A stretch of DNA of 64,000 nucleotides from NCBI RefSeq assembly GCF_000003815.2, contig NC_049994.1, forward strand, positions 5,973,283-6,037,282, in the 5' to 3' direction. This DNA comes from Branchiostoma floridae. Taxonomy: Eukaryota; Chordata; Leptocardii; Amphioxiformes; Branchiostomatidae. The notes under the pieces were generated by a model. That model ran no database searches and was not told the DNA's origin. It saw nothing but the letters and a program-made list of their open reading frames with translations. This document shows, one piece after another, positions 16,607-41,912 of the stretch. How positions within the stretch are numbered: the stretch's first letter is position 1; the number at the start of each line of letters is the position of its first letter. A program made the translations under genes and the position numbers.

Positions 16607-18718
16607 TTAAAGTGTAGATTGTTTGTCAATTTTGAAGTGCAAGTTGGAGGAATAGGCATCGTTACACAGAAGGACATTCAGACATCGCTCCGCTGGGGGG
16701 CGTTTCTCAGGCTCACCGTCCCAACACTGCTGCATGAGTTCCCGCCAAAAGTAGATGGGTACAGCACCTGTGGGAAACGACGGTCTCGTACCAGCTGCTA
16801 CCTCCTTGATGAACTCCAGTGGCTGCGGTGCCCCTTTGAAGATGACGTCACCATACCACAACTCCCACAGCATCAGCCCGAAGCTGAAAATGTCAGCCTT
16901 CCTGGTGTACTTGCGACGACTGCCAGAGTACACCTGACGGTGTGAAATCAAACAATATATGTCATTATCAGGGTCATCTCTGAAAAATGTAAAACAACAA
17001 AGTGGCACTCAAAGTAAATAGAAACAAAGAACAACAAAAAACGTTTGCATAACCCAAAAGACAGTTTCGGGTTTACATTAATCATCCGGTTAAAATGGCC
17101 TTATTGTTTGTACACCAACAGCACTAACAAGAAATGTAAATCTGAATTAGGGAGAAAATCTTACATTTGCATTATCACAAATTCCATGTAATAAAAATAT
17201 CAATTTGACTCTAACGTCATCAAATTACTTGGACAATTCCTCAGTTTGACTTGCTCTATCTCGTTGATAAGTGATAAATATCGTTAACTACTTTGTACGA
17301 AAGACCCATCGAATTTACGGTCGACAATCTTCATGCGGGAAATTTATGTTATTTAAAGATGTTGGAGTAAAACCAAGGATGAGGCTGCGACTAGAATGTG
17401 TTTTGTCTGTATACATGTACTTGTCAGTTAATCGTCTTCGGTACGGTATATATGTACTTGAAAGTAAATTCACTGGATTGATCGAAGAATAAAGCTCACC
17501 CACCTCGGGGGCGGCGTACAATAGTGTCCCACATTGCGTCCCTGTTACTTCGTCTTCCACTTTCGAAAGACCAACATCACCTAACTTCACGATATCACCT
17601 TCCGACACCTAGAGAAACAGAAATAAAAAGTCATCCTTAACTCAACCTCAATCCTTAAGATACATTTTCAAGGGGTCTACCGAAAGTGCGAAAAGGAACG
17701 AAAAGGAACGAAAAGGAACGAAAAGGAACGAAAAGGAACGAAAAGGAACGAAAAGGAACGAAAAGGAAAGTACCGAAAGTGCTTCGCTCGCGCTTTCGGT
17801 GCTTTCCTTTTCGTTCCTTTTCGCGCTTTCGGTACTTTCCTTTCCGTTCCTTTTCGCTCCTTTTCGTTCCTTTTCGCTCCTTTTCGTTCCTTTTCGCTCC
17901 TTTTCCTTCCTTTTCGCACTTTCGGTACACCGTTTTCAAGTAGCTATAGCGGTAGTGCAATGGGATTTTGTTACGGCTCACGTTTTGGCCAAGCACACTG
18001 GGTCACGATAAGAGTGTTAACCGGTTCGGTACCAGGTCGTTTCGCCACAATGTCACTTCCCCAACACCATTTCGGCACAAGGTAAGTCGTTTCGCAACAA
18101 AGCACAATTCATTTCGCCACATTTGAATCTTATTTCTCTAGATGGCCTAATAGCATTATAAATCGTATTCCTAACATCACTTAGAAAATATGTCATGATT
18201 TCATTCGCTGACATCCATGAATGCGCAAGTGATGTTAAGAATACGATTTGTTTCACAATTGTGTTTTGTTGCGAAACGACTTGTGCCTTGTTGCGAAACG
18301 ACTTACCTTGTAACGAAATGGCGTTGGCGAACTGACACTGTGGCGAAACGACCTGTAAATGTTGGTTCTTTTACGTGCAGAAGTTTCACGCCATAAGCTC
18401 CCCACACACGTAATTATTGACTTTATGTCCCCATCCGAAAAGGACCATGCGACTCTTTTCCAGTCGTGCCCAGACCCGGACAAGAACCTGAGGCACTACC
18501 GCCAGAGTTGAGACGAATAGTGCGCCAACGTCTACACTAGGCAAGCAGAAACGACAACAGAGAAAAATTATTAAACAAAGGGACCATTTACCAAAATGTT
18601 TTCCATTTTAAGGTCTCTATGTAGATAGCCCTTCCTGTGTATGTACTTCATTCCTTCTGCAAGTTGGATGGCGATGCCTGTGACGTGTTTCATTGCTGCA
18701 CCTTGCTTTGTAGAATAC
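16607..18718 (-). CDS. DSTYK-like: Kinase C-lobe exons
   Basis: Exon 18718-18592 has the catalytic loop YLHRDLKMENIL. Exon 17608-17504 has the Mg-binding DVG (DFG variant) and ends at AAPE. Exon 16933-16607 has the helix-F motif DIFSFGLMLWEL and CWDGEPEKRPPAERC, then a short tail ending DKQSTL. Catalytic Lys, Asp, Asn and the DxG Asp are all present, so it should be an active kinase. DSTYK likewise has DLG rather than DFG. Confidence 0.88.
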
Positions 18719-21638
18719 CTGCAAGTTGGTAATTCATACCCAATTAGCACACAGAACATGCAATTCTACCATCAAAATCACGGAACCTGCACATTATAGA
18801 AAAAGTGGGAAGGCTCACCGGTCTCCTACTTCATCTGAAGTTGTCAAACCCAATAGAAGTAATTATATGTTGGTGTAGCCTGGGTACCATCCTCCTAAGC
18901 AAAAACTGGCTCCATCTTTTTGCTTACTAAACCACGGTTACTACTGAGGATGGTACCCAGGCGTTGATGTAGCATAGAATCATTTTATAACGTTCAGATG
19001 TATTTAATACTCTATTCTTTTCATGCCTAAAGTTATCGAACCTAACAGAAGTAGTTGAGGTAGTTATATGTTAATGTAGCCGGGATACCATCCTTGGCTC
19101 AACCTTTTTCTTGCATAACCACGATTGCTACGTCGATATGTAGCATAGAAATTTTTTTCTAACGTTTTTGTATTCAGTACTCCATTCTTTTCATGCAATG
19201 TTCTTGTTATAATATTCTGTGAATACTTAAATTTATTCTTTTTTCAATAGTTAAAATCCGTACACATTGCTGTAGGCTTAGCATCTCATAGGACTTTGGT
19301 TTGTGATTCACGGCCAGTAGTATTACATTCTCCGCAAGGAGGCGGGGGAGGGGGCAGATGATTTACGCAAGCCTGGTCTAGTCTCGTGTTCTCTCGCGTG
19401 ATCGAGACTAGGCCATTCTCCGTGACCAAAATGTGCTGTCAGACATCGAAAATTTGGAGATAAGTATACCTTTAAAATAGTCACTGATAAAATTAATAGT
19501 AACCATTACCTTTCAAGTTTCCCTGGGATTTTCGCAGAATTTTTCTGTACGTAGTGCCTCAGGTTCCCCGTACAGAGTTCTGTTACCAGGACATACCGAC
19601 TGTCACCATCGGGATTCGTCAGAAGAAAACTTCCAATCAACTTCAGAACGTTCGGATGATCAAGCGATCTGTGTATAGTAAGAAAACACAGCTTATCAAG
19701 ATATTTTAAAAAATTAATAAATACATTTTTAATCATGTATAAGGTCAAGAATGTACTAATGGCGTCGGGCGGCGTAACTGCAGGGTATTTCATTTATCCT
19801 AGAACCCAGAGGTCCTGGGTTCGAATCCTGCAATGCCACCGATTTTGTGCCCTTGAGGAAGGCAATTTTCACGACATTCCTCACTTCACATGTAAAAATG
19901 GGTACCTGACTTTGGTTGGGGAGGTAAACGTGGTGGGAGGAGAGGGTTTGGCTTAGCCTTCCAATAACCCACAAACACATACTAAGAGACCTTAAGATGG
20001 CATCTCACTGCACTTGCGTCAAGATTGCGTCACTGCGGGGTTCGTTCACTGCGTCACTGCTTTGTTATTTTCTCCAATGTTTTATAGTTTAGATATTGCG
20101 CAATACGTAAAACTATGACTTCATTCATTCGTCCCATAGCCTTAATCAGTCGTAGGGGCAGCACAACATGTTGTGCTGTATCAATAGGCATGTTAGTCCC
20201 CTGGCGGCGCCTATCTCCTCTCCGACTATGAATTAGAAGACGACAAAATACACAAAAAGTCAGAAAATCCGTTCTTTATCTCTTAAATTCGTTGAGTATC
20301 TCCCCGCAGTGACGCAACCTTGACGCAAGTGCAGTGAGACACCGCCTTTCCAACGATACGAAGTTTAATACACCGGAAGATAACATGTTGTTGCGAGGTT
20401 AACTAACGTGTTAACGAAGTTGGAGGACAAAGTGTGGCAGAAACATCAGCAAGTTGATGGTGGCCACCTAAACACTAAGAAGAAGACAATGACGGCCCCC
20501 CTCAACGAAGACTGACATGCGGCAAGTATGAGTGAGTGAGTGGGTAACTAACTATATTATGATTAAGTGAAAGTATGTTTTTCGACGCACCTCAGTACTT
20601 TCCCCTCTCTGACCACATCTGAGACGTTATTCTCTGAGAGGGGGTTCCGGATTACCTTCAGAGCGACAGGAACGACACCACTTTCCCTTCTAAGTCTGGC
20701 TCTGAAGATGTCTGCAAAACTGTAAAAATACATTTTTAGTAATGACCCTCGTCAAATAAGCAGGGACATTGATGCAATGGTTCGTAAACAGTTGATATAA
20801 TTAATATAGCTTGATAATAACTTTATTGCAAGATCATGCCCGTGGGCTAATTGCAAAGTAAGACAGTGGTATACATGTACAGAACATGGATATGTCATCT
20901 ATCTTAAATCTATGTCTATTTAAACTATCTGAGGGGGTTGATTTCTTTTCTGTTTGCAATGGGAGATGAACTGTCCAACGTTTTCATATATAAACGGGTG
21001 GGACGAATTAAGCATGAAGATTGTTTTTTGTTGGTCGTTTAGGTGTGAAAAGCTTGGGAAAATTTTGTAGATTTCTAGGAATAATTTCCTTCTTTCGGGT
21101 TAGTATTGTGAACATTTAAAAAAAAAAGGCAAAATGTAGTTCATCTTCCACCGCATTTCCTGTAAAATATTTACAAGTTTGGTAAGTAAGAGCCAAGGCT
21201 AGTCTATAAGAATTCTATGCAGATTCCCTGGCTGATAGGATCCGGAAGACAGTATATATATGGACCAAGACATGGCGGCTAGTTATTGTTTTGGCCCATA
21301 CATACTGTCTTTCCATCGGTGGTTCTGCTTGAAGATTGAGAAATTACGCTGTCATGTCATGTTAAAGGCAGAATGAAAACAGTACGGGTACATGCCAAAG
21401 TGCAAAAAATAACTTTAACAAAGACCTGCCAGTCCCAATAGGCATGGACCTGTCCCAATCCTCGATGTCGTCAGGAACGATGTCGCGCGTCTCCAGGTGA
21501 TGGACATGAAATAGTTGCAGCTTACTGTTGGAAGAAGAACGAAAAGTGTATTATTTCCCCCCCATCTCGAAAGACAATGGCAAACAGGGTCGTTTAGGCG
21601 ACCCGTCTGCCTGGCCTGCACGTGACTTTTTAAGGCGA

Positions 21639-21693
<55 letters not shown>

Positions 21694-24600
21694 ACTTCCT
21701 TCTCCACCCTCTCGTCTACTGGCGCACTAAGTCTCACAGGGACAGAACGGTATGCCACGTGTAAGACGGACATTGTGCCTTTCCCAAGGGCACAAGATTG
21801 GTGATACGGCAGGATTCGAACTCTGGACCTCTTGGGCATGAGCCCAACGCGCTGCCGATTGCGCCATGCGATCGCACTGAAAAGTGCATTAAAGGTATAT
21901 GTACTAAAGTTTATCTCACTGAAGCATGTGAGTGATACTGCGTCTGAACCGTCTTCCTCAGAGTCGGACCCAGGCACTTACATGTATACGAAATGGCAAT
22001 GTAGGCCAATGAACAAAAATCATTAAGTTACTGACCGGAATCACCTCACCTGATCAACGTCTGACACTCATTGGCTACCGGTTGAACTTCACGGATGATA
22101 GCACTGTTGGACCGTACTTCATGTGAAAGGTCCTCCAGCAACTTTTCATTAGCTTCCATGGTGGACACAAGTTCGTTCTGGAAGAAAGTCACAATGTCGC
22201 CTTAGTAGAATCTTAACAGAGATATAACTATATTCTATAATCTATAACTGAACTATCTGTAGAGGGATGTCACTGTGGCTCAACTGGTAGCAGCTCCACA
22301 GTTGAGCTCCTGGTTCCAGTTAATTGGTTAGGGCTAGCAACCCCGGAATACACCCTAGCTGTTACTGAAACAGCAAGGAAGCTTACTGCCCTATTTGAAA
22401 CTAGGCACTACAAGGGCTCAACAAACAAACAAACGAACGAACGAATGAAATCATCTGCAACACTATCGAACCTGGTGTGTCCATTAACGATGGCCGAAAA
22501 AAGTTGATTAATAGAATTTTCTCAAGAAACAACTTTGACTGAAATGTTTGGTAATTTTCTTAATGACAATTTTTTAAATGGCTGTTCCTGCTTTACCAAT
22601 ATGTCTAGCGTTTGAAGGTTTCCAAAATCATTAGCTTAGTGTTGAAATAAAATTTTAGCGGTTGGAAAGGTAAGGCAGGTATTCAATGACAGAGTACTAC
22701 CTTAAGACGCTCCATGTGTCTTTTGAGATTCTTGAGCTCTTCGGACAAAAACTCCCGAACTGAATCCTTGGTGAGCGTCTTCAGATACTCCCTCGCATAC
22801 TCAGACATGTAGATAACAGGGTCGGCACTAAGGGAAAGAAAACAGTTCATTTACCCCCGTAAATCGTTTCATCGTGTCGGTAGATTCCTGGTACATTCAG
22901 TCGGCTCTACGCACCACGTGCAGGAGGACGAATGAGTGAGTGAGGTTGGTAGATCAATTGAACAAAGTCTTTATCGTTCGACAAAATTCCATTAGTTCTT
23001 CAGTAAACGTTTCGACGACCATCTGTCGCCTTCATCAGTACAAAATGAAACAAATACAATCGGTGCTATATGAACAAGACAGAGTCAGTGCAATCCGAAC
23101 ATTACAATGTCATGTAATTACAATAGGTAAAGTTCGGATTGCATTGACTCTGATTAGTTCATATAGCACCGATAGTGTTTGTTTCATTTTGTACTGATGA
23201 AGGCGACAGATGGTCGTTGAAACGTTTACTGAAGAATTAAAGGAAGGTTGTGTAACGAAAAAGACTTTGTTCAGTTTCTTTACCCGTTTAAGGAAATTAA
23301 GACCTGGTGGCTGATGAACGCAACGAAAGAAAAGGAAATGAAGAATTTTGACAGTCAACAATGAAACACAAATCACTTCACTGTATAATAGCAACTTTTG
23401 GCGCAACAGTATTCACTGTATTCTACTCACTTGAACCGACGGACGAGTCGCCTCTGCTCTATACTGGTCTGGGCAGCGATGAGACCCATTACTGGTAAAG
23501 AGATCACAGCTGGAAAATGTAAAAAATGCGTAAAAACATTGCACCAAAAGGTCTTCGTTTTCCTAAAAAATGTACCCTGTATTGCTAGGAAGCGTGTTAG
23601 CTTTGCAGGTAGGTTTATAATATGCTGTCACATCACGTTTTTTTGCAGGAATCTACGTGATTGCCTTGTCACGCTGTTTTTTCTCTATTCATATTTCAGC
23701 CATACATAGTATGGTGAAATATATTGTATTCGTAATGTTTCTTTCTTTCTTTCTCCTGTCAAATCTTCAAAGTGATTCATCTCCGCCGTTCCTGGACCGA
23801 ATGACCTGAAATTTGGCACAAGGGTAAAATGGACCAATACCTTGATGCCTTTTTCTCAGTTTTTTCATATCTGCCTCTAAAATGATTTTATTGAGTTTTT
23901 TTGGTCAATTTTAGACCAAAACTGTATATTTTGGCCCCTGTACCCTGGTATTACAACCAAATGAGCTGAAATTTGACAGAGATGTGCCTTGATAATGCCC
24001 CCATATAAATTCGATAACACTTTTGGTGTACAGTACAACAAAATGCTTATTTTTGCGATTTTTTTTACCAATTTTTGACCAAAAAAGGACACTTTTGGCC
24101 CCTGTACCCTGGTATTACAACCAAATGAGCTGAAATTTGACAGAGATGTGCCTTGATAATGTCCCCATATAAATTCAATAACACTTTTGGTGTACAGTAC
24201 AACAAAATGCTTATTTTTGCAATTTTTTGACCAATTTTTGACCAAAAAAGGACACTTTTGGCTCCTGTACCTTGGTATTGCAACCAAATGAGCTGAAATT
24301 TGACAGAAATGTGCCTTGATAATGCCCCCATATAAATTCGATAACACTTTTGGTGTACAGTACAACAAAATGCTTATTTTTGCGATTTTTTTTACCAATT
24401 TTTGACCAAAAAAGGACACTTTTGGCCCCTGTACCCTGGTATTACAACCAAATGAGCTGAAATTTGACACAGATGTGCCTTGATAATCCCTTCATATAAA
24501 TTCAATAACAATTTTGGTGTACAGTGCAACAAAAGGCTTATTTTTGCGATTTTTGGCCAATTTTTGACCAAAAAAGGACACTTTTGGCTCCTGTACCCTG

Positions 24601-27600: not shown

Positions 27601-30600
27601 GCTACAGGGACATCCCTAGATGCTCGAAGTACACACCTGCAGCTACTGTGAGAACCACCCAAACTGGAACTGTCAGCAGGCCCAGCACTGCAGTCTTCTT
27701 TCTGAACAGTGGTCTTTCTCCATCCAAAGTCTCAGGCAGAGGCCTGTCCTCTGCTGATTCATTTACCAGTGGTGCATCAGCAACGATTGTCAGGATGCTC
27801 TCTTCAACTTGTCTTATGTCCTCCTCCAAAATCCCCAGCCTTTCGGTTTGCAGTGTGGTCATTTCCCCATACGCTCTAAAATGGTCAACAAAAGGGCAAT
27901 GTTGTACTATATGGTAATGTTTGATTCGGTGCAAAATATAAGTAATAAAATTCTTTAAACGAGTGCAGCTGTTTCTAAAACAACACACATTGCATTGTTG
28001 ATATTTATGTATATGAAAATAAGACAACCATCTGCAGATCGGTCAAAAATATGTATCGATTTTGGTCAGATTTGATTCCTGGCAGATGTAAATCTGTACC
28101 ATAGCCATGTACCTTTGAACAACCTCGCTGTCTGTTATCCACTCTGACACAACGTCTGATATACGTTCTTTCACATGCTCGACGATCGTAGACTCCAGAT
28201 CCTGTATGCTACTAACATCAGCGATGGTTGTCGTGTCCCAGATTGCCAGCTCATTCTCCAAGGTCTCCGATTTTAAATGGTCATATAGCTCTCGAACAAT
28301 AGTTTCGGAACATCTTTCTGTTTCCAGCTCTAGTATCCGAAGACTGTCTTTTAGTCTGAATGAAGAAAGTCAAACCGGGAGTGAATGCGTGATGACCATG
28401 AACTAAATGCATCGGTATCTAGAACCTAGCCTGGGTACCATCAGATTTCTACCGGGGCTCCTTACACTTAGGGTAGCGAGTGTAAGAGCCCCGGTAGAAA
28501 TCGGCTAGTACCAAGGCTAGCTAGAACCCTACAACTTTGTGCAATATTGGATAACAAGGTTCATTGTACATAACCAAGTCTTCTATTCAAACTGAAGTTT
28601 TGGTGACCGTCTGTCACCTTCCTCAGACAATACTGACAAGTTCTAGTACACACTGCAGGTAGGTGTCGCTGCTAACGGATGTGGTTCTAAACGTTTTTAC
28701 ATATACATATTAGGTAGTCCATGCGGTGTTTGCAATGCGGCCCTATACGTAAACGCAAGGAAGTTGCATATACGCACGTAAATAGATAGTTCATGGCATG
28801 TTGCATCAATGCGGTTCCAAACGTTAAGTGTTTGCATGTGTTCTACATTACGTCGGTCATGCCATGTTCACTATGCGGTTCCAAAGGTAAGTCTGTCGAA
28901 GGTCCGTACAAATATATTGCAGTGACTACCTTTGTGATATTATTTAATAGTTGATTCCTCCTTTGCTAACATTAAGAACGATGTACCTTTTCCTGAACTT
29001 ATCAAGGCGTTGTCGTACGCTTTGGATATGTGACGTCTTCTCGTCTACGTTTTCCTCAGCCGCTACTAGCCGCGCCCGTAGGTAGTAGTACGTCCGCCTT
29101 AGCAGGTAGTCCAGGAATCTGGTCAAGGTTAAAATGAAATTTTTAAAAAGGTAAAGGTAGATGTCAGGGTAGTCCCTTGGCCTTTTTGAGGCCGTAGGGG
29201 CAGTGGGTTGTCTGACACTGTCTAAGGCATGGTATTGGGAGGCTTGGCTCATCCCTCTCCTTCTTTGCTTTTTAATTTTACCACCTATATAGCTACCCGA
29301 AGTCAGGTACTCATTTGTTTGCCTGTGTGGAGAGGAAAGTCGTAAAAAGTGCCATTTTCAACGAAACGACGTCTAGCCTAAAACGGCAGTAATCGAGCAG
29401 GTGACCTGCCGGCCTCGTGTCAGTTAGCTAAGCTTGTATCCACCCTCGTTCATCAAAAGCGCCACCTACAACGGCTACATATAGCGGTGAGAAGCAGAAC
29501 TCCAGTTAGAAGCTCTGACGAAGGTGTCTGAGAGACATCAAAACATAAACAATGTAAGTAGCTGCTGGTTGTGTAAAAAGAATTCTTCTATATACTATAT
29601 TCTACCAACCTGATGAAAATATTTCGGAAGAATATGCATGTTCGCGAATCTAACAGCGCATGCGCAGTTCAAAGGTGAAGACCCCTGACGTGTAAACAGT
29701 TCTTGTCTCGACCTTGCTTTAAACATGTTCAGATGTCCTCCATAGGTTTGCCGTAGTAACTATGTATAACAGTGTCTGAGACGTGTTTTGTTTATGTCTA
29801 AGGGGCCTTCAACTTTGACATATTCCCCACAATTCCTGTCGCTGCACATACGTACTCGGCTATCGGAAGTGTGAAAGATATATTGACATTTACACCAACC
29901 TCCTGTACCGACAGGTAGAACACTTGGGAAGTAGGGTCTAGTTCAGGCCAGCTTTTCTGAAGTCTCTTGATCATCTGTTCTTTGACCTCCTCTTCTTCCC
30001 ACTCTGGTACCTGGTCCCACTTGTTAAAGACGAAAATGGCGGACTTCGGGTGAAATCCGGCCTTGGGAATTTGAGTCACAAACTGCCGGAGGATTCGGAG
30101 GACCTGCCGACGTGATTAGATAAGATTATGTAAATGATTATTCATTAGCGCTATAGCATAATCATTAAGAAAATACAACTGACTACAAACCTATAGTGGT
30201 TAATGGCGGGGATTTTATAATTGCGGTATTAGGAACCTAAGTAGAGATGAACATGCTTGGACATAAATCATGCAAATCACGGCCGCATTTACATAATTTA
30301 TGACGAAATACTTATCAACATGTCTTATCAACTTATTTCCATAGAGAAGATGGTCAACTAAAATGATTTATGAAACTAAGGAAAGTCTTCGCATAATCAT
30401 GGAGAAACCTTAATAATACGTCACTCGAGAAGCTAGGTTGATATCATTTGGAGAAAGTATGATGTCGTGGAACTCTAGTTTCCATTTGAGGCACACTTAA
30501 TGTAAGGTAAGGTAAGGTGGTATCTCACTGCATTTGGGGCACCGGTGCGTCACTGCGGGGTTCGTTCACTGCGGCACTGTTGTGCTTTTTTCGCCTATTT

Positions 30601-33600
30601 GTTTAATAATGTAGACATTGTGTAATACGTAAAAGTATGACTTAGAAGAATAACTAAAGGTTAGAAAATGTGTTATTTGTCTCTGAAAATTGTTGAGTAT
30701 CTTTCGAACCCCGCAGTGCCGCACCGGTGCCCCAAGTGCAGTGAGATACCACCCTTACCCTGTCAGGCTGCACCCCGCCAGCATTAGCTGTGTTGATGAC
30801 ATAGATGAAGGCACACGCTTGTGACAGATAATCCAACGTGATGCTGTCCAGCTGTGAGTCATCTCCTACTCCTGGACTGTCCACCAGGAAAATTCTATCC
30901 TGGATTTGTATGAAAACATATCCTCAGGTAAAATGATACTTTTTCATATTTAAGTGATTTCAATAATAATACAGGTATGTCTTATCATAATCATATTTCA
31001 GCCATACATAGTATGGTGAAATATATTGTATTCGTAATGTTTCTTTCTTTCTTTCTTCTTTCTCCTGTCAAATCTTCAAAGTGATTCATCTCCGCCGTTC
31101 CTGGACCGAATGACCTGAAATTTGGCACAGGGGTAGAATGGGCCAATACCTTGATGCTTTTTTCTCAGTTCTTTCATATCTGCCTCTAAAATGATTTTAT
31201 TGAGATTTTTTTGGTCAATTTTAGATCAAAACTGTATATTTTGGCCCCTGTACCCTGGTATTACAACCAAATGAGCTGAAATTTGACAGAGATGTGCCTT
31301 GATAATGCCCCCATATAATTTCGATAACACTTTTGGTGTACAGGACAACAAAATGCTTATTTTTGCGATTTTTTTTACCAATTTTTGACCAAAAAAGGAC
31401 ACTTTTGGCTCCTGTACCTTGGTATTGCAACCGAATGAGCTGAAATTTGACACAGATGTGCCTTGATAATACCTTCATATAAATTCAATAGCACTTTTGG
31501 TGTACAGTGCAACAAAAGGCTTATTTTTTGCGATTTTGGGCCAATTTTTGACCAAAAAAGGACACTTTTGGCTCCTGTACCCTGGTATTACAATTAAATG
31601 ACCTGAAAGTTGGTATAGATAGGCATTAGATACTTGGTAACAAGATTCAAGTCAAATTTTTGACATAAACAACTTTAAAATGATTAATTTTGGCACTTTT
31701 CTGAGGGGAAATTTGTTTTCTTTTGGCCTCCTGACGTGACCTTCCGTGACCCCGCACAGAGCCACACCTGTGCGCGTCAGCCGGAGAGTTGATTGAATCA
31801 AAGACCTAGCCAATCAGCGAAGAGGAGGCCAAAGGCTAATTAATATTCATAAGCGGGGCCTCGTGATCCCGTATATAGCAGTGTTCCCGCCAGGGGGAGC
31901 GAAGCCCGCCTAAGGCTCTCGCATTTTACACTATTCAGAAGGCTTTATATTGTATCAGTTCTTAGGGGCATATCTATGATAATCGCAGCAGTCACTTAAC
32001 TTCTCTTCAGGAGTTTAGCGTAACACTATTTCAGGTCAAACCGTCAAAGGCAACTAAAAACAAACTTTAACGTTACTGAGTTCAACAGTACTTATAACTT
32101 GTTATCCGAAGTTGAAACGCTAGCGATGGTATTTTCGCTGCGCTGTTAGCTCCGTGCGACTGTTGTTGACGGTCTTATAACGGTATATTTTGCACCCCTG
32201 TACCCTGGTATGAGTAACATTTGGTATAGATAGGCATAAGATAGTTGGTAAAATGATCCAAGTAAAATTTTTGGCTTAAAGTACTGTAAAAGGCTTAATT
32301 ACAGCTCTTTTTTTAGGGGAAATTGTTACCTATTCTTTCTGCGCAGTGATTGACTCATCCATATGAAGCTATGGGGTGGTGCCTGGAGTCGCGCGAAGAT
32401 GTGATACATATAACATTCCCCAGACTGAGTGGGTGGGTGGGTGGGCGGGCGAAAAAGAAAAACTGCGCTCCATCGTGCCTACCTCTTTTCCCTTGCCCAC
32501 TCCTTCTATCCCATGTTCACGTCTTCGACGGATTCCAGGCTGTGCGGATGAGTCCGTCAAACTGCATGTGAATAGTCTATCCTGCCTTTATATGGGATTG
32601 GGTCTTCGCCTAATATAGGCATCGCCAATCACAGCGCAGGAAAGATAGTTACCTATTCTTTCTGCGCAGTGATTGACTCATCCATATGAAGCTATGGGGT
32701 GGTGCCTTCCGTCGCGCCTCTTCTTTTTAGTATCATTACCTGAGTTGCGTGGCATGCAAGCTTCTTGGTGCGTGTGTGGGTTCTAGGAGACCAACCGCTG
32801 ACTCCACGCTAATAGGGAACGCGCGCGGTGTATACTCAAGGACGACAGTGGACGCATAGTCAACATACTCAACATAGTCTATTGACAACTTCTTATGGAA
32901 CCGTTCCATGATGGTAAACAACCAGCACCACACAGTGCGTGACGTAACCACTAGCGGACTCTATCACTTATATGGGTGGTGGTCCAGACCTACCATAACA
33001 ATCACTATACAAAATTGGCGCTACTATTCTTCCTTCTTACATATGCATACCTCCTACTATTCCTAATCTCATCCTAACTTTCCTTCACTCCATCGTTCAT
33101 AAATATCCATACCTCCTACTATCCCCAATCTCATCTTAACCTTCCTTGACTCTATCGTTCTCTCCCACTCTCATCCTTACTTCTCCCACTCTCATCCGCC
33201 AAGTTCTTCACACCATCATTCTCTATTCCTTTCTATCCCAACCTCCATTCATTATTCTTTTATTCGTGTCCTGCTTATCGGAAGTGAATCAACTACAATA
33301 AACTAATGTGCAGTCTAAAACTTTTTATTTCTTGCATCGCCGGCGGTCCTCTTCTAAAAACTACTAGAAGTGTCCTCTGTCAGATGTTGCAAACTCCAAA
33401 TATACTTCCAACCCCATAAATAGAATAGACACGGTACGTAACAATGGTCTATTATCGCAGCAGATGTAACTTTCGTATAACGGATCTCTCCAAATTCGAC
33501 GTACACAAATGGCCCAGACATATTGCAAGAATAAATACCCAATATAATCCCATTTCTCCCTATCAGAACTCGGGTATAAACAAAAAAATGTCGACATTCG

Positions 33601-36600: not shown

Positions 36601-39600
36601 TCCTGTTACTTGCCTGGTGTTGTCCCACAACCTGTCGTACATCAACAAACAAAACTGTCCAACAGTCTTGTTACTTGCCTGGTGCTGTCCCACAGCCTAT
36701 CGTATACATCAACAAACCAAACTGTCCAACAGTCCTGTTACTTGCCTGGTGCCGTCCCACAGCCTGTCGTACATCAACAAATCAAACTGTCCAACAGTCT
36801 TGTTACTTGCCTGGTGTTGTCCCACAACCTGTCGTACATCAACAAACAAAACTGTCCAACAGTCCTGTTACCTGCCTGGTGCTATCCCACAACCAGTCGT
36901 CCATCCACAAATAAAACTATCCAAAAGTCTTGTACACTTACCTGGGGTTGTCCAACAACCTGTCGCATGACAACTACAAACAAAACTGTCCAACAGTCTT
37001 GTTACTTACCTGGGGTTGTCCAACAACCTGTCGCATGACAACAACAACAAAACTTTCCAGCAGTCTTGTTATCTCCCTGGGGTTGTTTACAGCATGTCGT
37101 ACGACAACAGCAAACAAAAACTGTCCAACAGTTCAATTGTCCAACAAACTATTGCATGACACCAACCAGACAAAAAACTGCAAACACTTTTTTTTTCTAC
37201 CTAGGGTTATCCAAGAACCTGTCAAGCGAGAAACCCAACGAAAAGCAAATCGGCTCATAAACAAAAATCAAATCACCTGAAATCTCGCTACAAACTCGAG
37301 GTTGTCTGCCGACCTGACGAGCAACAAGATAACAACCTCTAGCTGAGATATAGGACACACCTTAGGAGAACTGCCGCAGTGGTTGACAGCTGTCCGAGCG
37401 TCTTGAGGCCTGGTCCCTCAGCTTTTCGGGTTGCTGAATGCTGGCTGGTCCACAAAATGCAATGCCCAGAATCGCCGAGCCTAACTTCAAAATTAAACAA
37501 AGCAAATATACAGAAAAAAAACAAAGGAAAATACGTAAAATAAGGCAATACGTTCGAGTCCTTCCACAACAACAACAACAAACGTGATAGGCAGACAAAA
37601 AACTATACCAAATACTGTCTAAAGCCTTTCAAACAACGTAACTCACCCATAGAGCTACCAGTGATAAGTTGAAGCCTCCGACTCTTTCTTGATAAAAAAA
37701 GGTCGGGCTCTGCTCCGAGCGTGCGGAAACTGGAACAACGTTGTACCGCTTCATAAAGGCTCCTATGGCGAAAAGACGGGGTAAACGGCAGCCCTAGCGG
37801 TGGCTCAGTTGTATCAACATACCTAACTCAAATGAGACAACACAAAATTAATTATACCAAGCCTATTTTACCAAATAGAATCACTCACACCTGCGCACGC
37901 GAAACATGTGCGATGCGCAAACATATGCAAATTACGAGTCGCTAAACGAAATGAACGACAGAATAGTTGCTGACCAACAAAACACACCATAATCATACAA
38001 AAGGGGAAAACAGGAAAATAAAATCATGAAGGAACAAGAAAGAAAACAGCCGAGGGATCCACTAGAAAAAACAGCCAACGTAGGAAGACAAATCAAAATG
38101 GAAAATTCCACAAGACGCCAAAAATGGCCGCGAGCTCAAAACCTTGCGTACCTGCTTGGCTTGTAAATCCTACGCCCGTAGGAAACTACTCTATCTTCTC
38201 TGTTGTCGGCAATTTTCCCTACCCGTTCCCAGAAGGTCGTAGATATCGCAGACTTGTCCTGGTGAGTCTCACTGTCAAAAACAGTGTTACTGGTGCTCTG
38301 CTATGGAACGTCCGGCTCATTCACAAGGCTGCTGCGTCAGTCATGCTGGGGTCGGCCGTGCCGGCGGTGTCACTTGCCTTCTCCGTCGACGTCCTTTCAG
38401 ACAGTACTGCATATACCTGTGATGTCTAACAAACGCCCAAAATAAGCGTCTATTCTCGCAGTGAGGCATGCTTTCTTCCATAACCCATACACAATGCCCG
38501 GCACGCCAGTGTCTGCGAGAAGAACGGACCTCAGCATGACAAAGAGCGATACACGTGCAAAACGCAGACAACTCACATTCGTCCCTACGCAGCAACAACT
38601 TCTCGCAGTTTCACAAAGCAAAATAAAATACGAAATCTTCATGACACTAAAAGGGCAATCTTTGAATTCTATACTCCCTGTAAACGCAAACGAGGTAAAT
38701 ACTCGGTCTCTCTTCTACACCCCGAAAACCTGCTGGCGGTCTTTCTGTGGATCTTCTGTGTTTCCGTAGCCATGGCGTCGACGAACCGGCTGTGGGGAGG
38801 AGTCCGTCAAACTGCATGTGAATAGTCTATCCTGCCTTTATATGGGATTGGGTCTTCGCCTAATATAGGCATCGCCAATCACAGCGCAGGAAAGATAGGT
38901 TTTCTTTCGTTCTCCATGCCATGATCTTTCGGACGTTCACCCCACAGAGCCGACATCTGCACCTGCGTCTAGCCGGCAGGAAGAGTTAATTCAATTAATG
39001 GTTCAGCCAATCAGCGAAGAGGAAAGCGAAGGCTAATTAATATTCATAAGCGGGACCACACAATACGTTAACTTGAAGACTCAGGCCGTACAGACTTCTC
39101 GCCAGGATTTTTTCAAAGCGTCGGACAGGGGTCCGGGGGCCGCCGAATGTCCCTGGCGGGGTCCAGGGGCAGGGCCACTGTGGGGGGTGGGGGGTGGGGT
39201 GGGGGTGGAGGGTTTGGGGGACCCAGCTGGGCGAAGCCCCCCCGGAAGCTCTTGCATTTTAGACTATTGAGAAGGCTTCTTTTATCAGTTTTTTTAGGGC
39301 CATATCTACGATAATCGTAGCAGTCACTTACTTCTCTTCAGCAGTTTGACTTTAAAATATTTCGGGTCAAAGCTTCAAAGACAACTAAAACCTCATAAAC
39401 AACAAACTTTACTTATCTCAACAGTATACAAAAATATTGTACGGGTTGCCATCCTTAGTTGAAGCGCTTATTTATAGCGCTAGTATCTTCGATGCGCCGT
39501 TAGCCGCCGTGCGACTTTTGTTGACGGTCTGATATCCCTACGTCGCCGCCTCGCTGATATTCCCACGAACATGTTTCAAGAAAAATACCCAGCAAAAAAC

Positions 39601-41912
39601 GCTGTTCTGCGTCAAATTCTATTCTATAAAACATGTGGGACTCAGTGTTATAGTCTAAATATTTTGTAGAAGCACCGCTGTAGGAAAGAAGGTCCAAGCA
39701 ATGTAAAACATCACGTAGCATGAAGTTCGCTGTCAACTGGCACACAGCACATGGCTGTTTGAAACTCTAAGTCTAATCAACAGCCGTGTTTGATTGATAG
39801 CCGGCGGTCCTTTGACGAAGTCGGCGAAAGGTGCGTTAGTTAGAAAATCTGCGTTTAGTTTTGATACGTAATTATAAGTTAGTGGCGAGAATGATTATTT
39901 TCTCATCAATATTTCTCTTCAGAATTATTTGAACTTAATTGTACATCTAAACAATTGGCTTACCTGTGCAATGTTTATATGATTAATGATCATGTGTAAC
40001 GTATGGCTCATAGTCAATAGATCAGCATTTTCTCTATAGTGACCACCTGTCTATAGTGGCCACATTTCCCAGTGCTGTTGTTGTTTGACATAAAGTTTGA
40101 ACATTTAAATTGTAAGTAACTTTAAACTGCCAGAGTTTCAGCCCAATAAAACACTCTCAGCGCCAGCCTCGAGGGTATGAACAGACTGACCAGACAGACG
40201 AAAATAAATCCTCGAACAAGGTTCAATCGTATCTTCCGGGTCTGGCAGGAAGTTGTTAAACTAAAATAATAATAGGCTCGATGGCTGATTGCATACAAAG
40301 TAAAACAGTTTAACAGTTTTACAGCTTGAAGAAAACAAACGCTCCTACAGTACCTGCACCTGCTTGATAATTATTAAATCGTATGCCCTACTTGAATAAA
40401 AAAAAATTCACTGCAATAATGAATGTACCCACATCACAAGGAGCTTATACTTTTTTAAAACTTACACCTAGTTATCGTACTGAAAATTGTTAATGACATT
40501 ACATGAAGTCATTCAACAATTTTCAGTCATGATTAAATTTTCTGAATGGAAAGTGTGATTATTGTCATTTTCTGAAAAATAGAAGCAAGCTCTGTTTTTA
40601 CCTGGAATCAATTCACAATACCAGTCCACTTTGGGGGATAATGTACTGTTAAGAGGATGTTCCATTTTTGCGCAGGGGTGATTTGGAACAGTCCAATGTT
40701 GCGTGGGAAGGGGTATGGCTGAAATATGCTGTATTTGCTCTTAAGCAAATGTCGGCCTTTCTAGTGTTCTGTTATCTCTGTGCTGCAGTGTAAACAATTT
40801 AGAGTGGTATGGTTGCGGCTCTCCTAGTAACACCAGCTTTGTGCAACTTTTTAAAAACTTGCAAAGTTCTGCATATTCAAACCTGAAGGGGAACGATTTC
40901 AAACGTGTTGATTCTCCGTCCACATCACCTACAGGTTCTTGAAAAGTCACAAATTGTCCAGATTGTTTCAGAGATGAGCTACTAGTAAATCTAGCAATGA
41001 TTTACCAATTGTTTTTTTTCTTATTCTATACGACCAAGAACGGAGAGTTTTGAACTTACGTGTAAGATTGGGCTTGGCCAGAAGATTTCCACTTTCTTAT
41101 ACTTAGGAACCTTTTCTTTACTGTATATGTATCTTGAGAGCTGCCTTTTCTGGTTCTCTACGCTGCCGACTAGATCGAACTCGGTATCGCAGTCACCATC
41201 CCTGGAATGGACGACAACGTGCTTCCTGGTGTCCCGCTTCAGCTCACAGATGACATGCGTGGTGCTGAGCAGGGACTGGGGGAGGACATCTTCTCCGAGG
41301 AGGAGGTTTAGGAGGCTGCTTTTCCCAGCTGAAGTTTCACCTGAGGTGAAGAGTGTAGGGATGGGAACGAGTGTGTGTTGCAGTCTAAAGCTAAGGGCAC
41401 AACCCACCGTACGTGCAAAGTACGTGCTGTCTACGTGCCCAAACGTCGACTATGCAATCTTGTGGGATCCGTAAGTGGTAAGTACCGCCTCCGTACGAAC
41501 TCGTAGGGAATCCGACTGATTTTGTAGCACGCAGACACGCCGTAGAACTTAACGTGCAGGCAAAACTTTTTGTGCCATCGGGCTGCGGATTCGCCACGGC
41601 GGCCGCAGGTTGTGCCCTGAGCTTTATAAGTGGATTAGCTGCGCCAACATTGATCAGGAAGACGAAAATATTACCTGCTAGGCAGATAATTCTGGAATCC
41701 TCACCTGCTACAAGTATGGGACAGTCTCCGGACTCCAGCTTCTGACAAAAGTTGCTCAGCTCCGACTGAAACCCAGGGACATTTTTCTCAATCTCACTTT
41801 TCACGTCATCGTCAAGACGTTGAAGAAACAGGTCAGCCTCTCTCAAGACAGGTAAAAGGTCTCTTTGCAGTTTCCTGTTCTTGTCAGATATCTCCTTCAC
41901 CACGAATGCAGC
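16607..41912 (-). CDS. DSTYK-like: Dynamin-like GTPase fused to a protein kinase (DSTYK-like)
   Basis: Seventeen minus-strand exons were joined by splice site and phase: 41912-41705, 41340-41060, 30899-30759, 30103-29896 (or -29900), one small linker exon (see findings), 29118-28987, 28355-28113, 27875-27637, 23509-23431, 22827-22701, 22177-22050, 21524-21426, 20719-20591, 19668-19510, 18718-18592, 17608-17504, 16933-16607 (TAA). They give about 920 residues; human DSTYK is about 930. Order: N-terminal helix, GTPase with G1 (GETSAGKSS, about 70-78), G3 (DSPGVG) and G4 (NKWD), helical stalk, hydrophobic hairpin (about 477-511), second stalk, kinase (about 610-923). Kinase motifs: GTGSF loop, VALK lysine, HRDLKMEN, DVG in place of DFG, AAPE, CWDGEPEKRP. 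The start codon is not found: an in-frame stop precedes the acceptor at 41912, so at least one 5' exon is missing between here and 45337. The role is inferred from domains. Confidence 0.85.
17678..17927. repeat. Palindrome built from a 10-bp tandem repeat
   Basis: TACCGAAAGTGCG, then about eight GAAAAGGAAC units, then a short centre, then the complementary GTTCCTTTTC units ending CGCACTTTCGGTA. The arms can fold on each other almost end to end. It lies in an intron of the GTPase-kinase gene. Open frames here (KRNEKERKG-type) are repeat translations. Confidence 0.85.
18033..18355. mobile_element. Foldback MITE (CAGGTCGTTTCGCCAC)
   Basis: CAGGTCGTTTCGCCAC at the left is matched by GTGGCGAAACGACCTG at the right. 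Many inner GTCGTTTCGC blocks are inverted, and the core is ATTCCTAACATCACTT / AAGTGATGTTAAGAAT. Confidence 0.85.
18876..18962. mobile_element. Small foldback (TAGCCTGGGTACCATC)
   Basis: The arms GCCTGGGTACCATCCTC and GAGGATGGTACCCAGGC are perfect complements. The same termini open a foldback at 28437-28519 and, diverged, the element at 44008-44415. Confidence 0.8.
19510..21524 (-). CDS. DSTYK-like: Kinase N-lobe exons
   Basis: Exon 21524-21426 ends in the glycine loop (MPIGTG), continued by exon 20719-20591 (SFADIFRARL ... VPVALKVIRN), giving G-x-G-S-F and the VALK lysine. Using the upstream acceptor TTTTTACAG at 20719, not TTTTGCAG eight bases on, is what restores the loop. Exon 19668-19510 holds HPNVLKLIG and the hinge LVTELCTGNL. 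Confidence 0.85.
19757..19985 (+). mobile_element. tRNA-derived SINE
   Basis: A tRNA-like 3' half (GAACCCAGAGGTCCTGGGTT, then CGAATCC, a Pol III B box) is followed by a SINE body with CCCTTGAGGAAGGCA and GGTACCTGACTTTGGTTGG. The body text recurs in several SINE pieces of this window. Confidence 0.7.
19994..20349. mobile_element. Foldback MITE (RTCTCACTGCA family)
   Basis: The left end AAGATGGCATCTCACTGCAC and the right end GTGCAGTGAGACACCGCCTT are inverted. The inner blocks TTGCGTCACTGCGGGG are inverted too. This is the same family as the copy at 30514-30757 that touches a splice donor. Confidence 0.8.
21642..21692. repeat. (TG)n microsatellite
   Basis: About 25 uninterrupted TG dinucleotides at the 3' edge of a SINE. 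Confidence 0.97.
21695..21880 (-). mobile_element. SINE with a tRNA-Met-like head
   Basis: On the minus strand the anticodon arm TTGGGCTCATGCCCAA forms a perfect 5-bp stem with a CAT anticodon. GCGC pairs with GCGC as D stem, and AGTTCGAATCC is the B box. The acceptor arms pair only partly and a SINE body (GTGCCCTTGGGAAAGGCAC) follows, so it is not a functional tRNA. Confidence 0.7.
22050..23509 (-). CDS. DSTYK-like: Second hairpin arm and second stalk exons
   Basis: Exon 23509-23431 continues the hydrophobic segment (AVISLPVMGLIAAQ) and then a basic stretch (EQRRLVRRFK), as at a membrane face. Exons 22827-22701 and 22177-22050 encode charged helices (YMSEYAREYLKTL; NELVSTMEANEKLLEDLS) likely to pack back along the first stalk. 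All phases agree (2, 0, 2). Confidence 0.82.
22966..23275. mobile_element. Foldback MITE (CTGTCGCCTTCATCAGTAC)
   Basis: Arms of about 140 bp: TCTGTCGCCTTCATCAGTAC and TCGGTGCTATATGAAC on the left recur as complements on the right (GTACTGATGAAGGCGACAGA). The outer ends are AACAAAGTCTTT and AAAGACTTTGTT. It is intronic in the GTPase-kinase gene. Confidence 0.85.
23690..27170. repeat. 3.5-kb repeat X, copy 1
   Basis: Begins CATATTTCAGCCATAC and ends ATGTCGGCCTTTCTAG, with the inverse of the first motif (GTATGGCTGAAATATG) about 34 bp from the right end. It is near-identical over its whole length to copy 2 (30992-40764 minus an insertion). It contains a 164-bp tandem array (23941-24600), two AGCCAATCAGCGAAGAGG blocks and a hairpin near 26888-26933. 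No transposase frame is seen. It fills most of the intron between exons 27875-27637 and 23509-23431. Confidence 0.8.
23941..24600. repeat. 163-164-bp tandem repeats inside X
   Basis: TACCCTGGTATTACAA recurs at 23941, 24104, 24268, 24432 and 24594. The unit also has GACCAAAAAAGGACACTTTT. The minus-strand open frames here translate the repeat and are not a gene. Copy 2 of X has fewer units. Confidence 0.9.
27171..27480. repeat. Diverged fragment of the left part of X
   Basis: Directly after copy 1. It shares TTAAATCTTCAAAG.GATTCAT, the CTGTATATTTTGGCC block and the CCTAGTATTACGATTGAATG block with the X left region, at clearly lower identity. It represents an older insertion. Confidence 0.65.
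27637..29118 (-). CDS. DSTYK-like: Stalk exons and first half of the membrane hairpin
   Basis: Exons 29118-28987 (FLDYLLRRTYYYLRARLVAA), 28355-28113 and 27875-27637 are all joined through split Arg codons (AG plus G or A). They predict long helices. The last exon ends LFRKKTAVLGLLTV...VWVVLTVAA, the first hydrophobic arm. Gaps between exons hold only MITE/SINE debris and a foldback at 28437-28519. Confidence 0.82.
28437..28519. mobile_element. Small foldback (TAGCCTGGGTACCATC)
   Basis: The arms GATTTCTACCGGGGCTC and GAGCCCCGGTAGAAATC are perfect complements, with a short centre. Intronic, same terminus as 18876-18962. Confidence 0.8.
29147..29590 (-). mobile_element. SINE and MITE debris in an intron
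   Basis: 29147-29350 reads on the minus strand as a SINE body (GGCACTTTTTACGACTTTCC ... GAGTACCTGACTTCGGGTAG). 29430-29590 is a degraded copy of the 4187-4433 MITE family. Both lie between GTPase and stalk exons. Confidence 0.55.
29896..30103 (-). CDS. DSTYK-like: GTPase G4 exon (NKWD)
   Basis: The acceptor CGTCGGCAG opens VLRILRQFVTQ, followed by AIFVFNKWDQVP. NKWD is the guanine-specificity G4 motif. A Glu-rich helix and the strand QVFYLSVQE follow. Two donors are possible, GAG-GTTGGT (29900) or GTTG-GTGTAA (29896). Confidence 0.85.
30514..30757. mobile_element. MITE abutting a splice donor
   Basis: The left AAGGTGGTATCTCACTGCA and the right TGCAGTGAGATACCACCCTT are inverted, with inner inverted GCACCGGTGC and CACTGCGGGGTTCG blocks. 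The right end lies within the donor GTAAGG (30758-30753) of the G3 exon. Confidence 0.8.
30759..30899 (-). CDS. DSTYK-like: GTPase G3 exon (DSPGVG)
   Basis: A phase 0-0 exon of 47 codons starting DRIFLVDSPGVGDD. DxPG is the G3 motif that contacts the gamma phosphate. FIYVINTANAGG follows, as in dynamin-like proteins. The acceptor is pyrimidine-poor (CAAATCCAG). Its donor GTAAGG sits at the edge of a MITE at 30514-30757. Confidence 0.85.
32330..32648. mobile_element. Short TIR element (319 bp)
   Basis: Opens CTATTCTTTCTGCGCAGTG and closes CACAGCGCAGGAAAGATAG, imperfect inverted repeats of about 23 bp (four or so mismatches). TTAC precedes it and follows it. The first 55-60 bp and last 102 bp are shared with the adjacent longer element. 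Confidence 0.75.
32653..38898. mobile_element. Long TIR element (6.2 kb), non-autonomous
   Basis: It has the same termini as its short neighbour, in head-to-tail order. The interior differs and contains pyrimidine-rich CTCCTACTAT repeats near 33050-33200, a 65-bp minisatellite (35450-37140) and no recognisable transposase. The largest other frame (34488-34931, minus, about 147 codons) matches nothing I know. Confidence 0.7.
35450..37140. repeat. 65-bp minisatellite
   Basis: The unit contains TGTCCAACAGTC.TGTTAC, then TGCCTGG.G.TGTCCCACA and CCTGTCG.AC. TGTCCAACAG starts at 36201, 36266 (one change), 36331, 36396 and 36461, an exact 65-bp spacing. Outer units are more diverged. Because 65 is not a multiple of 3 and the unit lacks stops, three overlapping long plus-strand frames appear; none is a gene. 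Confidence 0.9.
41060..41912 (-). CDS. DSTYK-like: GTPase exons 1-2: helix plus G1/G2
   Basis: Exon 41912-41705 (acceptor TCTTCTAG) encodes an amphipathic helix and the strand leading into the P-loop (SGDCPILVAG). It is cut in phase 1 within the first P-loop glycine. Exon 41340-41060 (acceptor CACCTCAG, donor CAC-GTAAGT) continues ETSAGKSSLLNLLLG, then STTHVICEL, which supplies the G2 threonine. GxxxxGKS is the canonical dynamin-type P-loop. Human DSTYK (as remembered) keeps the NLLLG...VLP context here but lacks GKS. Confidence 0.88.

What the first reader, a model, noticed from the sequence alone, without database searches (positions are those of the whole stretch)
16607..41912. One gene joins a complete dynamin-like GTPase, a membrane hairpin and a complete kinase
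Joined exons read through G1 (GETSAGKSS), G3 (DSPGVG), G4 (NKWD), two long helical stalks, a hydrophobic segment and a kinase with all catalytic residues. Every exon junction but one linker agrees in phase. This would be a membrane-remodelling GTPase wired directly to a kinase, which could couple membrane state to phosphorylation. I know of no functional description of such an intact fusion.
Basis: partly seen in the sequence, partly recalled or inferred. Interest (0 to 1): 0.87.

Follow-up and report, generated by a model that had tools for sequence, protein, structure and literature searches.

The report
Mitofusin-like GTPase fused to kinase
This animal genome carries a family of genes that join a mitofusin-type membrane GTPase, a membrane-inserting segment and a protein kinase in one protein, but the copy in this window is missing one short connecting piece that its relatives have.

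Summary
The exons are real. On the minus strand, 41,912 to 16,607, sixteen exons encode a Dynamin_N GTPase, a stalk-like region, a ~32-residue hydrophobic segment, a second stalk-like region and a kinase with its catalytic residues. The GTPase is closest in sequence to bacterial dynamin-like protein and mitofusins, not classical dynamin. 14 of 15 junctions agree in phase.

The two-gene alternative fails at family level. In 18 of 22 family G1 loci in the same genome a kinase or stalk exon lies downstream on the same strand, kinase sequence itself in 17. Thirteen loci have an open frame running from at least the second stalk into the kinase N-lobe. One paralogue assembles over nine exons, 949 codons, phases agreeing.

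The remaining junction of the window copy is a real lesion or assembly loss: a hinge segment found in 13 of 13 other loci examined is not found here, where a dispersed repeat lies.

The closest known protein is probably vertebrate DSTYK, whose recalled N-terminus weakly matches the family GTPase profile. Ten paper searches showed no functional description. Coupling of GTP cycle to kinase is inferred.

The parts
41705..41912 (-). E1: stretch before the G domain, ends in ...CPILVA and the first base of the G1 glycine codon; no start codon found
   Evidence: homologous exon in paralogue C10
41060..41340 (-). E2: G1 P-loop (G)ETSAGKSS and switch I region LSTTHVICE
   Evidence: (PF00350 row at C16:6014405)
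30759..30899 (-). E3: G3 DSPGVG and the family stretch YVINTANAGGVQPDR
29900..30103 (-). E4: G4 NKWD to ...FYLSVQE, phase 0 out
29148..29376 (.). dispersed repeat lying where other loci have the hinge segment; an in-frame linker from E4 would have to read through it
   Evidence: 37 other places, 69-82%; hinge not found by tblastn and hmmsearch
28987..29118 (-). E5: start of stalk 1 (FLDYLLRR...), phase 2 in
   Evidence: boundary set by homology to C2, C1 and L063
28113..28355 (-). E6: stalk 1
27637..27875 (-). E7: stalk 1 and first half of the hydrophobic segment (AVLGLLTVPVWVVLTVAA)
23431..23509 (-). E8: second half of the hydrophobic segment (AVISLPVMGLIAAQ)
22701..22827 (-). E9: stalk 2
22050..22177 (-). 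E10: stalk 2, acceptor set so that E9-E10 is in phase
21426..21524 (-). E11: end of stalk 2 and start of kinase (IGTG)
   Evidence: E11 and E12 are one exon in paralogue C2
20591..20719 (-). E12: kinase N-lobe, SFADIF, VALK, REGKVL
19510..19668 (-). E13: kinase, SLDHPNVLKLIG...
18592..18718 (-). E14: kinase catalytic loop HRDLKMENIL
17504..17608 (-). E15: kinase DVG and activation segment to APE
16607..16933 (-). E16: kinase C-lobe, C-terminus and stop codon TAA

Best explanation
The window holds one gene of a multigene family that encodes membrane-anchored GTPase-kinases: a BDLP/mitofusin-type G domain, a stalk interrupted by a proline-containing ~30-residue hydrophobic segment (probably a hairpin), and a C-terminal protein kinase. 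Shown: domain order, intact motifs, and the single-polypeptide nature of the family. Inferred mechanism: the hairpin anchors the protein so that G domain and kinase both face the cytosol; GTP-bound G domains dimerise and the stalks rearrange as in mitofusin/BDLP, which crowds the kinase domains and lets them trans-phosphorylate and signal. GTP-driven assembly on a target membrane would be the switch of the kinase. The window copy is either a decaying member or one whose hinge was lost in assembly or replaced, because a segment conserved in the other loci is missing there.
For: Exons and phases; Pfam Dynamin_N and kinase over cut-off; PDB sequences nearest BDLP 2j68 (1.3e-13), then mitofusin-1 (1.6e-10) (query contained the provisional linker), for paralogue C10 BDLP 1.4e-16, bacterial GTP-binding protein 5owv 3.9e-9, mitofusin-1 2.5e-8. 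Family: 18 of 22 G1 exons have a kinase or stalk exon downstream on the same strand; kinase sequence itself in 17, one of these (C2:30,267,086) only by matches at E 0.02-0.08, while C1:16,597,523 shows only stalk and hydrophobic segment (row to 342 of 409). 13 loci with an open frame from at least stalk 2 into the kinase N-lobe, three printed at 409, 461 and 442 codons. Paralogue C10: 949 codons, phases agreeing. In L050 and L063 the hinge continues the G4 exon in one frame. GTPase and kinase trees of ten loci share C1/C1b, C10/C223, L056/L057 and the group C10-C223-L054-L056-L057. Missing hinge and repeat.
Against: No transcript, structure or activity data. Four of 22 family-like G1 exons have no kinase or stalk exon found nearby. 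Kinase residues are lost in C223 (VAVL, HGD, EVG), uncertain in L063, and HGDLNLDN in C15:2.5576 Mb at E 0.07, so kinase activity is not needed in every member. The two trees differ on L054 and L063, and no formal congruence test was run. At C2:1,706,436-1,707,119 the longer match has two stops, though the shorter one has none. Stalk helices and hairpin topology rest on sequence only.
Confidence: 0.62

Rival explanations
1. The window copy is a pseudogene of the family: the hinge was lost when a repeat moved in, so the joined protein is not made here although paralogues can make it.
For: Hinge found in 13 of 13 other loci examined, not in the window (best profile E 5.4 in the gene region; 3.2 in the whole window), no N in 28,001-31,000, repeat in its place; start exon not found.
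Against: All sixteen identified exons are open with GT/AG sites and intact catalytic motifs; a long-dead copy should carry stops. A frame from an acceptor at 29,284 through the repeat into E5 is open (frame 2), so exonisation is possible; that join was made by hand in the provisional model and not supported by homology.
Confidence: 0.43
2. The hinge exists in the animal but was dropped by the assembly, and the gene is intact.
For: Otherwise intact exons; repeats in the same interval make local collapse possible.
Against: No N gap in 28,001-31,000.
Confidence: 0.28
3. Two separate genes: a GTPase gene (42-28 kb) and a kinase gene (22-16.6 kb).
For: Long introns and one out-of-phase junction in this copy.
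Against: The out-of-phase junction lies between G domain and stalk, not between stalk and kinase; E5-E16 read through 630 codons from stalk to stop; open frames from stalk into kinase in 13 loci; paralogue C10.
Confidence: 0.04
4. An immune-type effector: an expanded family in which the GTPase recognises pathogen-containing or damaged membranes (as Mx, GBP and IRG GTPases do, recalled) and the kinase triggers a death or interferon-like response. This is a role, compatible with the anatomy of the best explanation.
For: About 20 loci, at least four close divergent pairs, mostly about 20-60% identity over exon-sized matches, some with degraded kinase motifs; DSTYK is reported to phosphorylate STING at late endosomes and to cause cell death when overexpressed (PMC11933320: start of abstract, passages).
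Against: No expression or infection data; expansion alone does not show immunity.
Confidence: 0.35

Closest known systems
Bacterial dynamin-like protein (BDLP, PDB 2j68)
   Same: Best PDB sequence match of the G domain in the window gene and in paralogue C10; GTPase plus helical stalk with a membrane-inserting tip (recalled for BDLP)
   Different: BDLP has no kinase; the match covers mainly the G domain
Mitofusin-1/2 and Fzo1
   Same: Among the next PDB matches; order G domain, stalk, membrane segment, stalk (recalled)
   Different: No Fzo_mitofusin Pfam match listed at E up to 0.1; kinase at the C-terminus
DSTYK (Dusty, RIPK5)
   Same: Long N-terminal half and a C-terminal kinase (recalled); recalled human N-terminus scores 15.6 bits against the family GTPase profile, best of 20 shuffles 0.9; recalled kinase scores highest of the kinases compared
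   Different: Recalled DSTYK lacks a working P-loop and the hydrophobic segment; no clear orthologue found in this genome with the recalled query (best 33% identity); letters recalled, not fetched
LeoA (PADLOC-DB model)
   Same: PADLOC LeoA profile matches the G domain at 2.5e-12
   Different: Bacterial dynamin-like protein (recalled), no kinase; general superfamily similarity

Membership tests
Dynamin superfamily | G1, G3 and G4 motifs and Pfam Dynamin_N over cut-off | tested here: met
   GETSAGKSS, DSPGVG, NKWD; 77.8 bits against cut-off 27
Dynamin superfamily | helical stalk beside the G domain | not tested
Dynamin superfamily | GTP-dependent assembly and hydrolysis | not testable with these tools
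   needs biochemistry
Classical dynamin | Dynamin_M, GED and PH domains | tested here: not met
   none among the 12 Pfam families listed to E 0.1 (model with provisional linker)
Mitofusin | membrane hairpin between two stalk segments | tested here: inconclusive
   hydrophobic ~32 residues with internal prolines between E6-E7 and E9-E10; topology not tested
Mitofusin | Fzo_mitofusin C-terminal domain | tested here: not met
   not among Pfam families listed to E 0.1
Protein kinase superfamily | G-loop, VAIK Lys, alpha-C Glu, HRD, DFG Asp, APE | tested here: met
   IGTGSF, VALK, REGKVL, HRDLKMEN, DVG, APE; Pfam 168.4 bits
DSTYK family | kinase domain closest to DSTYK | tested here: inconclusive
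   recalled DSTYK kinase 123.1 bits against the family profile, next L071 114.4 and L072 104.1 (both loci were fetched as best matches of the recalled query), others 88 or less; no tree with outside kinases
DSTYK family | shared N-terminal region | tested here: inconclusive
   15.6 bits over 43 profile positions around the P-loop, recalled sequence

The most novel reading that the evidence does not exclude
A previously undescribed kind of signalling protein: a mitofusin-like, hairpin-anchored GTPase whose nucleotide-driven assembly on a membrane directly switches on its own C-terminal kinase, expanded to about 20 genes as membrane-damage or pathogen sensors in this animal; vertebrate DSTYK would be a relative in which the GTPase decayed into a pseudo-GTPase scaffold.
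Probability: 0.3. Interest if true: 0.86.

Novelty: new variant of a known kind. Interest (0 to 1): 0.62.

Why it matters
GTPase-driven membrane remodelling and kinase signalling are normally done by separate proteins. A protein that carries both would let one molecule convert the state of a membrane into phosphorylation, and paralogues with an intact GTPase but degraded kinase motifs offer natural separation-of-function variants. If the DSTYK link holds, it gives a testable identity (a decayed BDLP/mitofusin-type G domain) to the N-terminal half of a human disease kinase.

Tried and rejected
Two-gene reading: rejected for the family. E9-E10 as the faulty linker: rejected after comparison with paralogue C2. 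A linker exon from 29,284 or 29,322 into E5: not supported, it overlaps a dispersed repeat and no hinge homology was found there (the tblastn output was cut, so I repeated it on the interval alone, best E 0.39). First exon: an ATG-to-donor scan in five loci and a comparison of upstream regions gave nothing shared. DSTYK orthologue in this genome: none clear (146 rows, best 33% identity). Relatives of the G domain in prokaryote genomes and viral contigs: 167 and 118 pattern matches, none confirmed; the patterns reach close relatives only. NCBIfam on the G domain: DynA 1.2e-14 but 53 bits against a cut-off of 1600. Minor Pfam matches: MMR_HSR1 and ABC1 over cut-off in the G domain and kinase, as expected of relatives, and PDEase_II below cut-off in a stalk, taken as chance. 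Structure prediction was not run (rule above). Ten paper searches. Papers seen: PMC11933320 and PMC9573974 in passages and abstract starts; all others as search listings, listing 20 of 365.

The genome size of 513,431,437 bases and contigs numbered 1-19 that look chromosome-sized in the rows seen fit the recalled Branchiostoma floridae assembly; this is recall, not a test.

Full report
Observation. Sixteen exons run from 41,912 to the stop at 16,607. E1-E4 give 278 open codons with G1, G3 and G4; E5-E16 give 630 open codons from the stalk through the hydrophobic segment to the end of the kinase. Scanned apart, the halves match Dynamin_N at 1.3e-21 and PK_Tyr_Ser-Thr at 2.5e-49. Chance can be set aside: the G4 exon alone finds a paralogous exon at 57% identity, E 2.9e-19, and the kinase C-lobe exon one at 46%, E 8.5e-26.

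Phases. Fourteen of fifteen junctions agree. I first met two misfits. E9-E10 was resolved by paralogue C2, where the equivalent exon starts in phase 0; the window has an acceptor with a good pyrimidine tract at the same place, start 22,177. E4-E5 could not be resolved: E4 ends in phase 0, E5 begins in phase 2.

What is missing. In the six paralogues whose intervals I first examined (C2, C10, C223, C1, L063, L050), a hinge segment of about 34-39 residues with the pattern DF..LLDG...L.P..L...L..Y continues the G domain; it is a separate exon in C2, C10, C223 and C1 and runs on from the G4 exon in L050 and L063. Four are in the candidate list; C1 and L050 were read from the printed frames of that call. 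A profile of the six finds the hinge in all seven further loci tried (L041, L053, L054, L055, L056, L057, L058; E 1.6e-8 to 6.5e-14 by best domain), but nothing in the window gene (best E 5.4). The interval has no N. Within it 29,376-29,148 matches 37 other places at 69-82% identity (38 of the 42 other rows; the other four match a piece at 29,500-29,425; only 40 of 1407 candidates were scored).

One gene or two. The finding's own refutation would be a break between GTPase and kinase. In the window the open junction lies between G domain and stalk; stalk and kinase are joined by phase-matched exons. In paralogues the DNA answers: C1, C10 and C223 have one open frame of 409, 461 and 442 codons from stalk through hydrophobic segment and second stalk into the kinase N-lobe. 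Searching the genome with two such frames gave 11 and 13 rows. Rows without stops that reach the kinase lobe are 8 of 11 and 11 of 13, together 13 distinct loci; some of these rows begin only in the second stalk, and the C2:1.706 Mb locus has two stops in the longer match. One paralogue (C10, 14,260,300 to 14,254,079, minus strand) assembles from the same first identified exon as the window gene to the stop: nine exons, 949 codons, hinge included, phases agreeing, with splice sites chosen by me from sequence and homology; Pfam Dynamin_N 8.6e-24 and Pkinase 2.5e-40. Its first exon is also not identified.

Family. PF00350 gave 33 rows in the genome. I dropped 11 as other dynamin-superfamily genes or second exons, by judgement from profile coverage and position. 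Of the 22 kept, 18 have a kinase or stalk exon downstream on the same strand within 26 kb and four have none found (C14 twice, C2:751,780, C6:16,129,150, with 27 kinase or stalk places typed). Kinase sequence itself is seen in 17, one of them (C2:30,267,086) only weakly; C1:16,597,523 shows stalk and hydrophobic segment only. Four of the dropped rows also cover the P-loop; counting them it is 18 of 26. At least four loci pairs are divergent within about 8 kb. Motifs: G1 is kept wherever it was covered; G3 is DxPG throughout; G4 is NKWD except NRWD in C1:16.496 Mb. The kinase is degraded in C223 (VAVL, HGD, EVG), uncertain in L063 and possibly in C15:2.5576 Mb (HGDLNLDN at E 0.07). Trees of the two domains for ten shared loci agree on C1/C1b, C10/C223, L056/L057 and the larger group of C10, C223, L054, L056 and L057; they differ on the place of L054 inside that group and of L063, and the window gene sits with C2 in the GTPase tree and beside C2 and the poorly placed L063 (support 0.16) in the kinase tree. 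This fits one fusion followed by duplication; no formal test was run.

Class. The G domain is nearest BDLP in the PDB, then mitofusins and other bacterial dynamin-like GTPases, for both the window gene and C10. No Dynamin_M, GED, PH or Fzo_mitofusin domain is listed. The hydrophobic stretch AVLGLLTVPVWVVLTVAAAVISLPVMGLIAAQ is long for one membrane helix and has internal prolines, as have the stretches of C1 and C10 (sequences), which suits a re-entrant hairpin; this is inference. The kinase is most like tyrosine-kinase domains in the PDB (best EGFR 2.8e-39, then a Src-Abl ancestor and FGFRs; 60 of 1331 shown), with DVG in place of DFG.

Relation to DSTYK. From memory, DSTYK is a large kinase with a long N-terminal half of no assigned fold. 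Against a profile of 19 family G-domain rows its recalled N-terminus scored 15.6 bits (E 6e-5 in a set of 102 sequences), covering the stretch around the lost P-loop; the next sequence scored 7.7 bits and the best of 20 shuffles 0.9. The recalled kinase scored 123.1 bits, above L071 at 114.4 and L072 at 104.1 (both brought in by the recalled query itself) and the other control kinases at 88 or less. This is a lead, not a test, because the letters were recalled. The genome search with the recalled kinase found no orthologue-like match. DSTYK is reported to act on STING at late endosomes and to induce cell death when overexpressed (PMC11933320, start of abstract and passages), and lies apart from RIPK1-7 in one analysis (PMC9573974, passages).

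Mechanism. Shown: order of modules, intact motifs, single polypeptide in the family. Inferred: anchoring, cytosolic placement of both enzymes, GTP-driven dimerisation that crowds and activates the kinases, and a sensing role. I put about 0.95 on the family being a true single-gene fusion, about 0.5 on the window copy being expressed as a joined protein, and about 0.4 on GTP-cycle control of the kinase.

Novelty. In ten searches of the held open-access library I saw no listing or passage that describes such a fusion; subscription papers are mostly missing and several listings were capped. Sequence databases very probably hold automatic gene models of these loci under DSTYK-like names (recalled expectation, not checked). 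Hence a new variant of known kinds of domain, in an unusual and testable combination.

Noticed in passing
G000:C223:91896-97534 (L014, L045, L004): Paralogue with intact GTPase motifs but kinase catalytic residues lost (VAVL, HGD, EVG): a natural pseudokinase member.
   Followed up: partly
G000 C2:751780, C14:3071923, C14:15539812, C6:16129150: Family-like G1 exons without a kinase or stalk exon found downstream; the C2:751 kb locus does have the hinge segment (L058).
   Followed up: partly
window 25613-27171 and 39216-40765: Two copies of a ~1.55 kb element, 96% identical, in two introns of the gene.
   Followed up: no
window 35652-37132: 65-base tandem repeat, about 22 copies, inside the 10 kb intron; it gives long open frames on the + strand that are not evidence of a gene.
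   Followed up: no
window 52084-53276: 288-base tandem repeat, about four copies, 92% matching.
   Followed up: no
window 45337 to at least 46378, minus strand: Upstream neighbour on the same strand: one exon matches putative cyclase PF04199 at 7.2e-9; the last exon (45337-45585) matched no Pfam family alone.
   Followed up: partly
window 19760-19840, plus strand: ARAGORN reports a tRNA-SeC-like structure in the E12-E13 intron; possibly a tRNA-derived repeat.
   Followed up: no
G000 C12, C10:15.16 Mb, C8:24.05-24.14 Mb, C7:24.41-24.54 Mb: Clusters of kinase matches, many in open frames of more than 900 codons, apparently intronless kinase arrays.
   Followed up: no
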